DNA from: an uncultured Lachnospiraceae bacterium
Lineage (GTDB): Bacteria; Bacillota_A; Clostridia; Lachnospirales; Lachnospiraceae
Direction: 5' to 3'
NCBI GenBank assembly: GCA_902767195.1
Contig: CACXGS010000155.1
Span: forward strand, 1 to 12,352
Length of the DNA stretch: 12,352 bases
Shown in pieces: positions 6,374 to 12,352 of the stretch; position 1 is the first letter of the stretch; each line of letters opens with the position of its first letter. The notes under the pieces were generated by a model, which searched no databases, was not told the origin of the DNA, and saw only the letters and a program-made list of their open reading frames with translations. A program made the translations under genes and the position numbers.

Positions 6374-7066
6374 TCATCCATAGTTTTTAAGCATGTTTTC
6401 GATCCGGTAGTCCAGCTGTCTTTCAGGCTCTGCAATATCCCACAGATAGTGAGCATCCGAATTGTGAAGCCACGGTTTATCTTTAAGGGACGGGTGCTTT
6501 TCCATGATATCATCATAGAATCCGAGGTGGTACAGCTCAAAGAAGGGAAAATCAACATCTTCCGGTACTGTGCCCATGATGGCAAGAAGGCTGTTGGCGC
6601 TCCGGTCTATGTGGGAAGGAAAGAATATTCCTCCATACTGCTTCATAAGATCCGGAAGCTCAGAAAAAGAAACACCGCTTGCTGTAATAAGAAGCTTGTC
6701 AATATTTCCTATAGGCCTGTCATCCTCATCGACAATAATCTGGTCGCCAAACACATCCGGCCGGTTTTTTACCGGCGGCATGGTGGAAAAGACATAGGAA
6801 TCAAAATCCATAGCCTGTTCCAGGGTAGGAAATAAGCAGACAGCATGTATTTCCTCGGAAGTGTTGATCTCCATCCCCGGTATTGCACGGATTCCGGCTC
6901 TTTTAGCGGCCTTCATGAAAGCTGGACAGTTTCTGGAACTATTGTGATCGGTGAGTGCGATTACATCCAGTTCCTTAAGCATCGCCATATTTACGATGTT
7001 GTTCACGGTCATGTCATTATCTCCGCAGGGAGAGAGGCATGAATGCATGTGAAGGTCGTAGGTCAT
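6374..7066 (-). CDS. PHP-domain metal-dependent phosphoesterase
   Basis: A 230-residue protein of the PHP superfamily, whose small members hydrolyse phosphoesters such as pAp, nucleotides or phosphorylated metabolites with a metal centre. The metal-binding set looks complete: H6 and H8 (DLHMHS), LTDHN near residue 40, GMEI with its Glu, a following His in IHAVCLF, PSHIDRS, and the paired Asp and His in NSDAH near the C-terminus. The frame stays open to an ATG at 7087, but that codon has no ribosome site. The ATG at 7066 has AAGGAG (7073-7078) 6 bases upstream and is chosen here. This places the gene 10 bases after the second DRTGG gene, last in the leftward operon. The substrate is unknown; context suggests a signalling or nucleotide-turnover role, which is inference. 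Confidence 0.85.
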   Translation of the reverse strand: MTYDLHMHSCLSPCGDNDMTVNNIVNMAMLKELDVIALTDHNSSRNCPAFMKAAKRAGIRAIPGMEINTSEEIHAVCLFPTLEQAMDFDSYVFSTMPPVKNRPDVFGDQIIVDEDDRPIGNIDKLLITASGVSFSELPDLMKQYGGIFFPSHIDRSANSLLAIMGTVPEDVDFPFFELYHLGFYDDIMEKHPSLKDKPWLHNSDAHYLWDIAEPERQLDYRIENMLKNYG

Positions 7067-7072
7067 GAGGGT

Positions 7073-7078
7073 CTCCTT
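7073..7078 (-). promoter_or_regulatory. Shine-Dalgarno site deciding the PHP gene start
   Basis: AAGGAG on the - strand overlaps the TAA stop of the upstream DRTGG gene (TAAGGAG) and lies 6 bases before the ATG at 7066. The upstream in-frame ATG at 7087 has no comparable site, so the protein most likely lacks the first seven residues of the longest open frame. Confidence 0.75.
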
Positions 7079-7406
7079 AAATTGCATCGAATATCATTTT
7101 GGCGGTCTCGAATGCGGGCAGCCTGGAACATAACACAGCGATGTCCTGCTGACCGGCTTTTTTCATCATTTCATCGTCCGGTCTTACTCCGTCACACAGC
7201 ACGATGCAGGCAACATCCGCAAGGGAAGCGACCGCCACGGAATTCATGTTTCCCATGACAGTGACCCAGGCACATCCTTCCGGTGCACGGCCCATGGCAA
7301 AGCTTAAAAGATCACAGCAATAAACACTGCTGATATCATTGGTCAGTGCCTCATCACCCGCGACGATTTCAAAACTGCATTTTGCAGCTGTATCCTTTAC
7401 GTTCAT
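7077..7406 (-). CDS. DRTGG-domain protein (second copy)
   Basis: A 109-residue stand-alone protein resembling the DRTGG domain family, small alpha/beta domains of uncertain function that in other proteins are linked to CBS domains and phosphotransacetylase N-termini and are suspected to bind nucleotides. It shares its layout with the other small protein of this operon (9164-9523): an initial MxVxD, a CDLLSFAM segment matching GSDMMSDVLAF, a central VAVASL helix region and a C-terminal VRPDDEM-K segment. The ATG overlaps the stop of the hydrogenase-like gene by 4 bases (ATGA), and GGAGA lies 6 bases upstream. That tight coupling suggests it is made in step with the iron-sulfur protein and may bind it. 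The family call is from pattern recognition; the function is unknown. Confidence 0.7.
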   Translation of the reverse strand: MNVKDTAAKCSFEIVAGDEALTNDISSVYCCDLLSFAMGRAPEGCAWVTVMGNMNSVAVASLADVACIVLCDGVRPDDEMMKKAGQQDIAVLCSRLPAFETAKMIFDAI

Positions 7407-10895: not shown

Positions 10896-10898
10896 ATA

Positions 10899-11276
10899 AT
10901 GAAGAGCTTAGCTGAGCTTAAAGCATTAAGAGATAAGGCTCGCAATAACATGGGAATGAGGGAAGATGCTCCCGATAACACCCGTATCGTAGTAGGAATG
11001 GCAACCTGCGGTATCGCAGCCGGAGCACGTCCGGTCCTTAATTCATTTGTCAATGAGGTTGCAAAGCGCGGCCTTCAGAATGTAACCGTGTCCCAGACGG
11101 GATGTATCGGCATCTGTCAGTTTGAGCCTGTGGCAGAAGTGTTTGAACCCGGTAAAGAGAAGGTTACTTATGTTAAATTAGACGCTGAAAAAGCTCAAAA
11201 GATTGTTGTGGATCACATCGTTAACGGAAATGTAGTTACCGAATATACAATCGGCGCCGTAAATGCCGCGAAATAA
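10899..11276 (+). CDS. hndB: HndB-like thioredoxin-fold [2Fe-2S] ferredoxin protein
   Basis: A 125-residue protein related to HndB and to the N-terminal domain of NuoF-like hydrogenase subunits, expected to hold or help transfer electrons through a [2Fe-2S] cluster. Residues 1-27 form a charged helix, then the thioredoxin-like fold begins. Visible Cys are C37 (ATCGIAAGA), C69 and C73 (TGCIGIC). The position expected for a fourth ligand by CX4C spacing is G42, so the cluster would have only three Cys ligands, or a fourth ligand from elsewhere. There is no other Cys in the protein. The ATG is 3 bases after the HATPase stop, and the stop (TAA) overlaps the AAGGAGG site of the next gene. This arrangement matches the hndB-hndC gene order of NADP/NAD-linked hydrogenases. 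Confidence 0.82.
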   Translation: MKSLAELKALRDKARNNMGMREDAPDNTRIVVGMATCGIAAGARPVLNSFVNEVAKRGLQNVTVSQTGCIGICQFEPVAEVFEPGKEKVTYVKLDAEKAQKIVVDHIVNGNVVTEYTIGAVNAAK

Positions 11277-11288
11277 GGAGGAAATAGT

Positions 11289-12352
11289 ATGTATCGTTCA
11301 CATGTACTTATCTGCGGCGGAACCGGATGCTCGTCATCGGGCAGCATGAAAATCCAGGAAGTCCTTGAGAAAGAGCTGAAGGCTCAGGGACTGGAAGAGG
11401 AAATTGCCATAGTCCGCACAGGTTGTTTTGGTCTCTGCGAGAACGGTCCTGTTATGATTGTCTATCCCGAAGGATCTTTCTATTCTCGCGTGACACCTGA
11501 GGATGTCAAAGAAATCGTATCAGAGCATCTGCTGAAAGGCCGTATCGTACAGCGCCTTCTCTACAAGGATTCTGTCGATGCTGAAAATGATACCATTAAA
11601 TCTCTGGATAAGACTCCTTTCTATGAGAAACAGAAGAGAGTCGCGCTGCGTAACTGCGGTATCATTGACCCAGAGATTATTGATGAATATATTGCCTATG
11701 ACGGCTATCAGGCTCTTGGTAAGGTTCTTACCGAGATGACCCCTGAAGAAGTTATCGAAACACTGAAGGCTTCAGGTCTGCGCGGCCGTGGCGGTGCCGG
11801 ATTCCCGACCGGCGTAAAATGGTCCTTTGCTGCAGTGCAGCCAGGTCCTGAGAAATATGTATGCTGTAATGCCGACGAAGGTGATCCCGGTGCATTCATG
11901 GACCGTTCTGTCCTTGAAGGCGATCCCCATGTTGTTATCGAAGCTATGATCATCGCCGGTTACGCCATCGGCGCTCATCAGGGTTATATCTATGTACGTG
12001 CCGAGTATCCCATCGCTGTTAAGCGTCTGAAGATCGCCATCGGCCAGGCTAAGGAATACGGCCTGCTCGGCAAGGATATTCTCGGATCCGGATTTGATTT
12101 CGACCTGGATATCCGTCTCGGAGCCGGCGCTTTTGTCTGCGGCGAGGAGACAGCTCTTATGACCTCCATCGAAGGCAAGCGTGGCGAGCCCAGACCCAGA
12201 CCGCCGTTCCCGGCAGTTAAGGGTCTCTTTGAGAAACCTACCATTCTTAACAACGTTGAAACATATGCCAACATTCCCCAGATCATCCTGAAGGGAGCAG
12301 ACTGGTTTGCTTCCATGGGAACAGAGAAGTCCAAGGGAACCAAGGTATTCGC
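11289..12352 (+). CDS. hydB: NAD-linked [FeFe] hydrogenase flavin subunit HydB/HndC (NuoF-like), cut by window end
   Basis: The flavin subunit that binds FMN and NAD(P)H and, in bifurcating hydrogenases, splits electrons between NAD and ferredoxin. Only 354 codons are present; family members usually run to about 600 residues, ending in ferredoxin-type clusters not seen here. The N-terminal thioredoxin-like domain carries all four [2Fe-2S] ligands: C9, C14 (CGGTGC), C46 and C50 (CFGLC). A linker leads to the NuoF core with the FMN/NADH glycine motif GRGGAGFPTG (166-175), the NADEGDPGAF segment just after, and GAGAFVCGEETAL further on. AAGGAGG (11275-11281) is 7 bases before the ATG. The frame is open to the last base, so the missing end is only the window edge. 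The catalytic HydA/HndD gene is expected next. Confidence 0.92.
   Translation, partial: MYRSHVLICGGTGCSSSGSMKIQEVLEKELKAQGLEEEIAIVRTGCFGLCENGPVMIVYPEGSFYSRVTPEDVKEIVSEHLLKGRIVQRLLYKDSVDAENDTIKSLDKTPFYEKQKRVALRNCGIIDPEIIDEYIAYDGYQALGKVLTEMTPEEVIETLKASGLRGRGGAGFPTGVKWSFAAVQPGPEKYVCCNADEGDPGAFMDRSVLEGDPHVVIEAMIIAGYAIGAHQGYIYVRAEYPIAVKRLKIAIGQAKEYGLLGKDILGSGFDFDLDIRLGAGAFVCGEETALMTSIEGKRGEPRPRPPFPAVKGLFEKPTILNNVETYANIPQIILKGADWFASMGTEKSKGTKVF

What the first reader, a model, noticed from the sequence alone, without database searches (positions are those of the whole stretch)
6374..12352. Back-to-back sensory and bifurcating hydrogenase operons as one candidate signalling system
Seen: five tightly coupled leftward genes (DRTGG, RsbW-like HATPase, HydS-like, DRTGG, PHP) face a rightward hydrogenase operon that itself carries a HATPase gene between its subunits. 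Known: sensory-type hydrogenases often neighbour working hydrogenases, and gene sets with HATPase and thioredoxin-like proteins near hydABC occur in Thermotoga and Clostridia. Inference: hydrogen or redox state read by HydS is passed through ATP-binding and DRTGG proteins, perhaps with a small phosphorylated molecule removed by the PHP enzyme, to adjust hydrogenase production or activity. No histidine kinase, response regulator or sigma factor is present, so the route would be non-classical.
Basis: partly seen in the sequence, partly recalled or inferred. Interest (0 to 1): 0.78.

Follow-up and report, generated by a model that had tools for sequence, protein, structure and literature searches.

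The report
Hydrogen-sensing kinase module beside bifurcating hydrogenase
A gene set that pairs a hydrogen-sensing hydrogenase with a sigma-factor-type protein kinase recurs in many anaerobic bacteria, usually beside their main hydrogen enzyme, and natural gene fusions point to the sensor's so far unknown partners.

Summary
Leftward DRTGG1, RsbW-like kinase, HydS (group D type), DRTGG2 and PHP face a rightward hydC, HATPase, hydD-like, hydB operon.

The genes behave as one system. Of 249 genomes from one phylum, 104 have an ortholog of HydS, RsbW, PHP or the hyd-operon HATPase; 86 of these have all four, and all 104 have a HydB homologue. In three genomes the set is split over contigs, yet its parts are kept.

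Natural fusions join neighbours: DRTGG1-RsbW, RsbW-HydS (120 of 120 listed hits), HydS-DRTGG2, PHP-HATPase, HATPase-HydD-like. In four HydS-less loci the kinase carries a CBS pair instead, so the sensor looks exchangeable and the kinase looks like its receiver.

Best reading: HydS sets a Ser/Thr kinase acting on DRTGG proteins, opposed by PHP with the HATPase: a partner-switching-like circuit without STAS, PP2C or sigma factor genes in the window. Output on the bifurcating hydrogenase is inferred.

Shown: linkage, fusions, active-site residues. Not shown: phosphorylation, direction, output. A 2026 study of a group D HydS calls for its interaction partners; these are testable candidates.

The parts
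9164..9523 (-). DRTGG1: DRTGG-domain protein, 119 aa; candidate partner or substrate of the RsbW-like kinase
   Evidence: PF07085 E 1.2e-9; fused to the kinase in 7 loci; D33 and S36 invariant in 148 of 148 distinct rows
8761..9174 (-). RsbW/SpoIIAB-like Ser/Thr kinase (GHKL ATPase), 137 aa
   Evidence: PF13581 and PF02518; SpoIIAB structures E 2e-8; E45, N49, H53 and glycine boxes invariant in 166 of 166 distinct rows
7403..8746 (-). HydS: putative sensory [FeFe]-hydrogenase of group D type, 447 aa
   Evidence: PF02906, PF04060, ferredoxin domains, no PAS match; C140, C195, C295, C299 invariant in 172 of 172 distinct rows
7077..7406 (-). DRTGG2: second DRTGG-domain protein, 109 aa
   Evidence: PF07085 E 1.5e-7; fused to HydS in L123 and L129
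6374..7087 (-). PHP-domain phosphoesterase, 237 aa; likely start is the ATG at 7066, behind AAGGAG
   Evidence: PF02811 E 1.9e-11; ligand-type residues H13, H15, D47, H48, E73, H159 in 155 of 155 and D211, H213 in 154 of 155 distinct rows; sequence
6333..6359 (-). terminator-like stem-loop after PHP
   Evidence: 10-pair stem and T run
9524..9838 (.). divergent intergenic region with back-to-back promoter-like sites (9698-9670 minus, 9721-9749 plus)
   Evidence: consensus scan; no Rex-like site in the window
9839..10339 (+). HydC (NuoE-like) subunit of the bifurcating-type hydrogenase
   Evidence: PF01257 E 2.5e-54
10341..10895 (+). HATP2: histidine-kinase-type ATPase domain without phosphoacceptor domain (place of A. 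woodii HydE)
   Evidence: PF02518 E 2.6e-15; fused to PHP in 5 loci and to the HydD-like protein in 1
10899..11276 (+). HydD-like [2Fe-2S]-thioredoxin-fold protein; three invariant Cys
   Evidence: weak PF01257, below its cut-off; C37, C69, C73 in 110 of 110 distinct rows
11289..12352 (+). HydB (NuoF-like), cut by the window end
   Evidence: PF01512 E 2.6e-46

Best explanation
A conserved six-gene signalling module (DRTGG1, RsbW-like kinase, HydS, DRTGG2, PHP, HATP2) reads hydrogen or redox state and regulates the bifurcating-type hydrogenase beside it. HydS binds H2 at a slow, sensor-type H-cluster; its change is passed by direct contact to the RsbW-like Ser/Thr kinase on one side and to DRTGG2 on the other. 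The kinase binds, and probably phosphorylates, the DRTGG proteins, which take the place that STAS antagonists have in partner switching. PHP, working with the kinase-like HATP2, reverses this, much as RsbU does with RsbT. The output reaches HydABC, most simply at the enzyme itself through HATP2 and the HydD-like protein. Shown: conservation, co-occurrence, fusions, intact active-site residues, sensor exchange. Inferred: phosphorylation, its direction, the acceptor residue, the H2 response and the output.
For: Five-gene order and strand in 69 of 80 loci; all five genes in 72 of 80 and 73 of 96 loci of two samples. Profiles in 249 genomes: all four tested families in 86 of 104 genomes with any. 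Split modules keep their parts in G139, G169 and G195. Eleven of 11 searched genomes whose module was not seen beside hydABC have HydB at 74-80% identity elsewhere. Fusions, two of them followed in the protein database. CBS pair in place of HydS in four loci, and CBS-kinase together with HydS in L180. Catalytic residues invariant. Group C HydS with PAS sits beside a SpoIIE-type phosphatase in L205. HATP2 distances follow the module rather than HydC and HydB in partial correlations (weak).
Against: Four loci pair HydS with a DRTGG gene but no kinase or PHP (L136, L138, L148, L153); their genomes have a second HydS locus, but in one of them (G179) no kinase ortholog was found at all. DRTGG1 is missing from 14 of 96 loci, PHP from 11, DRTGG2 from 7 and the kinase from 5, not counting contig edges. 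Genomes with HydB but no HydS are common (122 of 157), so HydABC does not need the module. In TamHydS the C-terminal cluster is not reduced by H2, so how HydS would signal is unclear. Fisher values ignore shared descent.
Confidence: 0.52

Rival explanations
1. Transcriptional route: the RsbW-like protein acts as an ordinary anti-sigma kinase under HydS control; its sigma factor and antagonist are encoded elsewhere and the output is transcription of hydABC and other genes.
For: Closest named relative is SpoIIAB/RsbW. Other sensory hydrogenases here are fused to sigma-54 activators (L196, L209) or to a histidine kinase (L208). Deletion of hfs genes is reported to lower expression of other hydrogenase genes in T. 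saccharolyticum (passage of PMC8924675).
Against: No sigma factor or STAS gene among the window proteins scanned, and no further gene family recurs near the module (at most 7 of 80 loci). The steady fusion partner of the kinase is DRTGG1.
Confidence: 0.2
2. Messenger route: PHP destroys a small phosphorylated molecule, and DRTGG or CBS parts bind nucleotides, so HydS steers a nucleotide signal.
For: PHP relatives include nucleoside bisphosphate phosphatase and RNase models (below cut-off) and a 5'-3' exoribonuclease structure. CBS pairs, found here on the kinase, commonly bind adenylates (recalled).
Against: No enzyme that would make a messenger recurs near the module. Kinase-sensor fusions point to direct protein contact.
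Confidence: 0.17
3. Assembly route: the module helps mature, assemble or repair HydABC, and HydS is a scaffold rather than a sensor.
For: A. woodii HydE, in the place of HATP2, is described as perhaps serving assembly or signalling (passage of PMC3315566). HydC is the upstream neighbour of HATP2 in 98 of 122 cases.
Against: 122 of 157 genomes without HydS still have a HydB homologue. Replacement of HydS by a CBS pair suits a regulatory input better.
Confidence: 0.07
4. Mere shared descent: the operon is old and rarely rearranged, without functional coupling.
For: Fisher tests ignore kinship, and distances of all gene pairs correlate (0.79-0.94).
Against: Parts are kept when split over contigs, fusions join different pairs, and the sensor is exchanged while the rest stays.
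Confidence: 0.03

Closest known systems
Group D (M2e) putative sensory [FeFe]-hydrogenase, TamHydS of Thermoanaerobacter mathranii (passages of PMC8163306; passages and conclusion of PMC13104023)
   Same: Domain plan, C-terminal Cx2Cx4Cx16C motif, missing proton-transfer Cys, no PAS, a histidine kinase-like ATPase gene beside it and a bifurcating hydrogenase downstream
   Different: The paper names the ATPase and an AraC regulator as neighbours and leaves the signalling route open; DRTGG and PHP genes, fusions and sensor swap do not appear in the passages seen. No sequence of TamHydS was compared here.
Group C sensory hydrogenases: TmHydS, RaHydS, HfsB with HfsC (passages of PMC10055695 and PMC11837493)
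   Same: Sensor-type [FeFe]-hydrogenase near a working hydrogenase, with a protein phosphatase-type gene in the group C operons
   Different: PAS domain in group C; a SpoIIE-type phosphatase (L205) where the window has kinase, DRTGG and PHP genes
RsbW/SpoIIAB partner switching and the RsbT-RsbU pair (recalled; SpoIIAB match)
   Same: GHKL Ser/Thr kinase with intact active site; a second small HATPase next to, and sometimes fused with, a phosphoesterase
   Different: No STAS antagonist, PP2C phosphatase or sigma factor found; DRTGG and PHP proteins stand in their places
hydE and hydD of the Acetobacterium woodii hyd operon (passages of PMC3315566 and PMC6288185)
   Same: A histidine kinase-like ATPase gene and a gene for a protein without predicted cofactor inside the bifurcating hydrogenase operon
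   Different: Equivalence to HATP2 and the HydD-like protein rests on description and recalled gene order; sequences were not compared

Membership tests
Group D (M2e) [FeFe]-hydrogenase | two N-terminal [4Fe-4S] motifs and four H-cluster cysteines | tested here: met
   H-cluster Cys in 172 of 172 distinct rows
Group D (M2e) [FeFe]-hydrogenase | C-terminal Cx2Cx4Cx16C motif | tested here: met
   C379, C382, C387, C404 in the window protein; motif from a passage of PMC8163306
Group D (M2e) [FeFe]-hydrogenase | no PAS domain | tested here: met
   no PAS match at E 0.01, whereas L205 and L209 show PAS in the same kind of search
Group D (M2e) [FeFe]-hydrogenase | proton-transfer Cys299 and Met353 replaced | tested here: met
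   A139 and S193 beside ligand Cys140 and Cys195; assignment of these positions to CpI numbering is recalled
Group D (M2e) [FeFe]-hydrogenase | placement in the group D clade of a tree | not tested
   no tree with named reference hydrogenases was made; the best NCBIfam model is group B1, far below its cut-off
RsbW/SpoIIAB partner-switching system | GHKL kinase with catalytic Glu and Asn, G1 and G2 boxes | tested here: met
   E45, N49, D74, G76, G78, G101-G107; SpoIIAB match; roles of these residues recalled
RsbW/SpoIIAB partner-switching system | STAS-domain antagonist | tested here: not met
   no STAS match among ten window proteins; elsewhere in the genome not testable, no genome held
RsbW/SpoIIAB partner-switching system | PP2C phosphatase | tested here: not met
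   none among ten window proteins; a PHP enzyme instead. A SpoIIE domain is present in a group C locus, L205
RsbW/SpoIIAB partner-switching system | sigma factor as target | tested here: inconclusive
   none among ten window proteins; could be encoded elsewhere
Electron-bifurcating HydABC hydrogenase | HydC (NuoE), HydB (NuoF) and HydA | tested here: inconclusive
   HydC and HydB present; HydA lies beyond the window end, with a hydrogenase-type gene next to HydB in relatives
Electron-bifurcating HydABC hydrogenase | electron bifurcation | not testable with these tools
   needs enzyme assays

The most novel reading that the evidence does not exclude
A new signalling architecture: a GHKL Ser/Thr kinase that takes exchangeable sensors (an H2-binding hydrogenase or a CBS pair) and works through DRTGG proteins in place of STAS proteins, with a PHP enzyme in place of PP2C, to control the bifurcating hydrogenase at the protein level through HydE/HydD-type proteins. 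HydS would be a gas-gated kinase subunit, physically joined to its kinase in many bacteria.
Probability: 0.38. Interest if true: 0.87.

Novelty: new variant of a known kind. Interest (0 to 1): 0.73.

Why it matters
[quoted passage not shown] the conclusion of a 2026 study of TamHydS says that identifying its interaction partners is critical (PMC13104023). The RsbW-HydS, HydS-DRTGG2 and DRTGG1-RsbW fusions name partners that can be purified and tested directly. If right, H2 sensing in many fermenting anaerobes runs through a protein-kinase switch, which bears on hydrogen and fermentation-product yields. It would also suggest a role for the HATPase gene found inside hyd operons.

Tried and rejected
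Rex control of the divergent promoter: best-site score 10.5 of 14 on average in 55 intergenic regions against 9.5 for shuffled sequence; 13 of 14 in four regions; 8 in the window, below its shuffled mean of 9.4. Weak and not general. The Rex motif was recalled.

Selenocysteine HydS: four HydS hits showed one in-frame TGA (G024, G110, G167, G224). The profile found HydS frames of normal score there without a stop (L158, L159, L155, L161), so the stop probably lies at the gene end; its position was not checked base by base.

Further module genes: clustering of 469 unknown ORFs within 6 kb gave no family in more than 7 of 80 loci. Genes beside the split set in L227 are maf, radC, mreBCD and a penicillin-binding protein, taken as ordinary neighbours.

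Mirror-tree correlations (80 loci): all gene pairs correlate (0.79-0.94); partial correlations tie HATP2 to RsbW, DRTGG2 and PHP (0.22-0.25) rather than to HydC and HydB (-0.09, 0.06). Weak support only.
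Full report
WHAT IS THERE. The window carries, left to right, an oligopeptide-transporter-type operon (303-6027), then on the minus strand PHP, DRTGG2, HydS, an RsbW/SpoIIAB-like HATPase and DRTGG1, then on the plus strand hydC, a second HATPase (here HATP2), a HydD-like thioredoxin-fold protein and hydB, cut by the window end. Neighbouring frames of the leftward unit overlap or lie 14 bases apart. 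A terminator-like stem follows PHP and promoter-like sites stand back to back between the operons. HydS has the features described for group D (M2e) sensory hydrogenases: two N-terminal [4Fe-4S] motifs, all H-cluster cysteines, a missing proton-transfer cysteine, a C-terminal CX2CX4CX16C motif and no PAS domain (description from passages of PMC8163306). No tree with named references was made.

IS IT CONSERVED. A scan with the HydS alignment kept the best 80 of 577 confirmed loci, mostly named as Lachnospiraceae, Oscillospiraceae or Clostridia. The five genes stand in order on one strand in 69 of 80. Allowing for overlapping frames, all five are found in 72 of 80; hydABC genes lie within 8 kb in 67, are absent in 5 and cannot be judged in 8. 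Ninety-six loci of that sample (L100-L195; duplicate L099 dropped; L100-L128 are only about 4.2 kb long) have all five genes in 73, the kinase in 89 (5 without, 2 at an edge), DRTGG2 in 87 (7, 2), PHP in 83 (11, 2), DRTGG1 in 79 (14, 3) and hydABC genes in 76 (7, 13). Some species may occur in both samples.

DO THE GENES DEPEND ON EACH OTHER. Kinase orthologs are set apart by a wide score gap (E 4e-31 against 1.5e-14). Of 249 genomes, 92 have HydS (two in pieces), 98 the kinase, 92 PHP and 99 HATP2; 86 of the 104 with any have all four. Pairwise Fisher p values are 1e-51 to 1e-58, not corrected for kinship. All 104 have a HydB homologue at E 1e-60 or better, but so have most genomes (214 of 249; 122 of 157 without HydS), so this point is weak alone. 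Of 13 loci in which no hydABC was seen (several on short contigs), 11 were followed up and all 11 genomes have HydB at 74-80% identity elsewhere. In G139, G169 and G195, kinase and HydS sit on one contig and DRTGG1, DRTGG2, PHP and HATP2 on another; in G139 and G195 hydC, hydD-like and hydB were read on a third, and in G169 the HydB hit is on another contig (L162). Where the module decays, several members go together: in L231 (G050) HydS and PHP are in fragments and no kinase is found, while DRTGG1 and DRTGG2 still score; in L233 (G018) and L212 (G145) only DRTGG2 is left beside the hyd operon.

FUSIONS. Continuous frames join neighbours: DRTGG1-RsbW in 7 loci, HydS-DRTGG2 in 2, PHP-HATP2 in 5, RsbW-HydS in 1, HATP2-HydD-like in 1. 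Some of these genomes are close relatives. Two fusions were followed in the large protein database. The DRTGG1-RsbW query gave 120 listed hits covering 94-100% of it (the query's own record included), among them proteins named from Thermovenabulum, Thermosediminibacter and Caldanaerovirga. A search with only the kinase part of the RsbW-HydS fusion, among proteins of roughly 350 to 1110 residues, gave 154 hits; all 120 listed have the kinase first and HydS behind it. Thirty-eight are 580 residues or longer and keep every cysteine examined. Eighty-two are shorter, mostly 510-570 residues, and keep the cysteines in 80 to 82 of 82; named sources among them include Planctomycetota, Spirochaetota and FCB-group genomes. 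So the kinase-hydrogenase pairing is neither a rare accident nor limited to one phylum. The HydS-DRTGG2, PHP-HATP2 and HATP2-HydD-like fusions were not followed further.

EXCHANGE OF THE SENSOR. Seven genomes have the kinase ortholog without HydS. In three (G103, G130, G163) four loci, L218 to L221, have a CBS pair in front of the kinase. L218, L220 and L221 also hold DRTGG1, DRTGG2, PHP and HATP2, and L218 the hyd operon; L219 has only DRTGG1 and a HydD-like gene close by. L180 has a CBS-kinase together with HydS. A sensor that can be swapped while the kinase stays marks the kinase as the receiver. Of the other four, G022 and G172 have DRTGG1, kinase, DRTGG2 and HATP2, G049 has DRTGG1 and kinase only, and in G249 the contig ends beside the kinase.

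HATP2 BELONGS TO THE MODULE. Of 122 HATP2 copies counted, HydC is the upstream neighbour in 98, PHP in 16, PHP is fused in 5, and 3 have other neighbours. Passages of PMC3315566 describe A. [quoted passage not shown] HydD is described as having no cofactor-binding sites. The present data suggest PHP as a partner of this kind of protein.

AGAINST A SIMPLE PICTURE. Four loci (L136, L138, L148, L153) hold HydS, a DRTGG gene and hyd genes without kinase, PHP or HATP2. Their genomes (G229, G179, G031, G204) each have a second HydS locus, but G179 shows no kinase ortholog (its second locus ends at a contig edge). In L135, L144, L147, L149 and L171 DRTGG1 is replaced by unrelated genes upstream of the kinase.

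HOW IT MOST LIKELY WORKS. Kinase residues E45, N49 and the glycine boxes are invariant in 166 of 166 distinct rows, and ligand-type residues of PHP are conserved throughout (rows were chosen by profile score), so both are expected to be active. Both DRTGG families share an invariant D-x-x-S (148 of 148 and 160 of 160); in the three other DRTGG domains that could be aligned there the serine is missing (a small control). The proposal is that HydS gates the kinase, the kinase acts on the DRTGG proteins, and PHP with HATP2 resets them. This resembles RsbW with its antagonist and RsbT with RsbU (recalled), but no STAS, PP2C or sigma factor gene was found in the window, so it works like partner switching and is not filed as a member. 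A group C counterpart (HydS with PAS) sits beside a SpoIIE-type phosphatase (L205), which fits protein phosphorylation as the shared language. Which step touches HydABC is inferred: HATP2 usually lies in the hyd operon and is once fused to the HydD-like protein, which favours control at the enzyme; transcriptional control is not excluded.

WHAT IS KNOWN. Papers note kinase- or phosphatase-type genes near sensory and bifurcating hydrogenases (passages of PMC8163306, PMC3492117 and PMC11837493) and propose regulation. The conclusion of PMC13104023 reports that the C-terminal cluster of TamHydS is not reduced under H2 and calls for identification of interaction partners. Searches for DRTGG with hydrogenase, hydrogenase with RsbW, serine phosphatase or bifurcating and DRTGG, anti-sigma, PHP domain or HATPase in pairs (15 of 25 listed) showed no paper on this module by title or abstract; most subscription papers, including the R. 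albus HydS paper, are not held.

LIMITS. No interaction, phosphorylation or H2 response was measured. Fisher values ignore shared descent; split, decayed and sensor-swapped loci matter more. Papers were seen as passages, plus one conclusion section.

Noticed in passing
L196:7491-9755 (-), L209:9233-11851 (+): Sensory-type hydrogenases fused to a sigma-54 activator domain with a Fis-type HTH (L209 also with PAS), near hyd genes. Proteins of similar length in L197, L211 and L212 were not scanned. Such a protein could switch genes directly; the one search tried listed no paper on it by title or abstract.
   Followed up: partly
L208:9378-12641 (+): Sensory-type hydrogenase fused to two GAF domains and a complete histidine kinase, upstream of hyd genes.
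   Followed up: no
P0278-P0359, the proteins under 580 residues: RsbW fused to a shortened hydrogenase domain that keeps the cysteines; some named from Planctomycetota and Spirochaetota. Whether these still bind the diiron site is unknown.
   Followed up: partly
L136, L138, L148, L153: Second type of HydS locus: HydS, DRTGG with the D-x-x-S motif and hyd genes, without kinase, PHP or HATP2.
   Followed up: partly
L227, L228, L229: The split set DRTGG1-DRTGG2-PHP-HATP2 lies upstream of a run of genes that in L227 is maf, radC, mreB, mreC, mreD and a penicillin-binding protein; L228 and L229 have ORFs of similar sizes, not scanned.
   Followed up: no
L026:3-323, L058:60-1463, L075:7497-8966: An ORF just upstream of DRTGG1 in a few loci looks by eye like a GGDEF or PAS protein; not scanned.
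   Followed up: no
window 10899-11276: The HydD-like protein keeps three invariant cysteines (C37, C69, C73) where [2Fe-2S] relatives have four (recalled).
   Followed up: partly
window 7066: PHP probably starts at the ATG at 7066, preceded by AAGGAG, rather than at 7087.
   Followed up: no
window 303-6027: Oligopeptide ABC transporter-type operon (two permease-like, two ATPase-like frames and a binding protein); only the binding protein was scanned. No link to the module was looked for.
   Followed up: no
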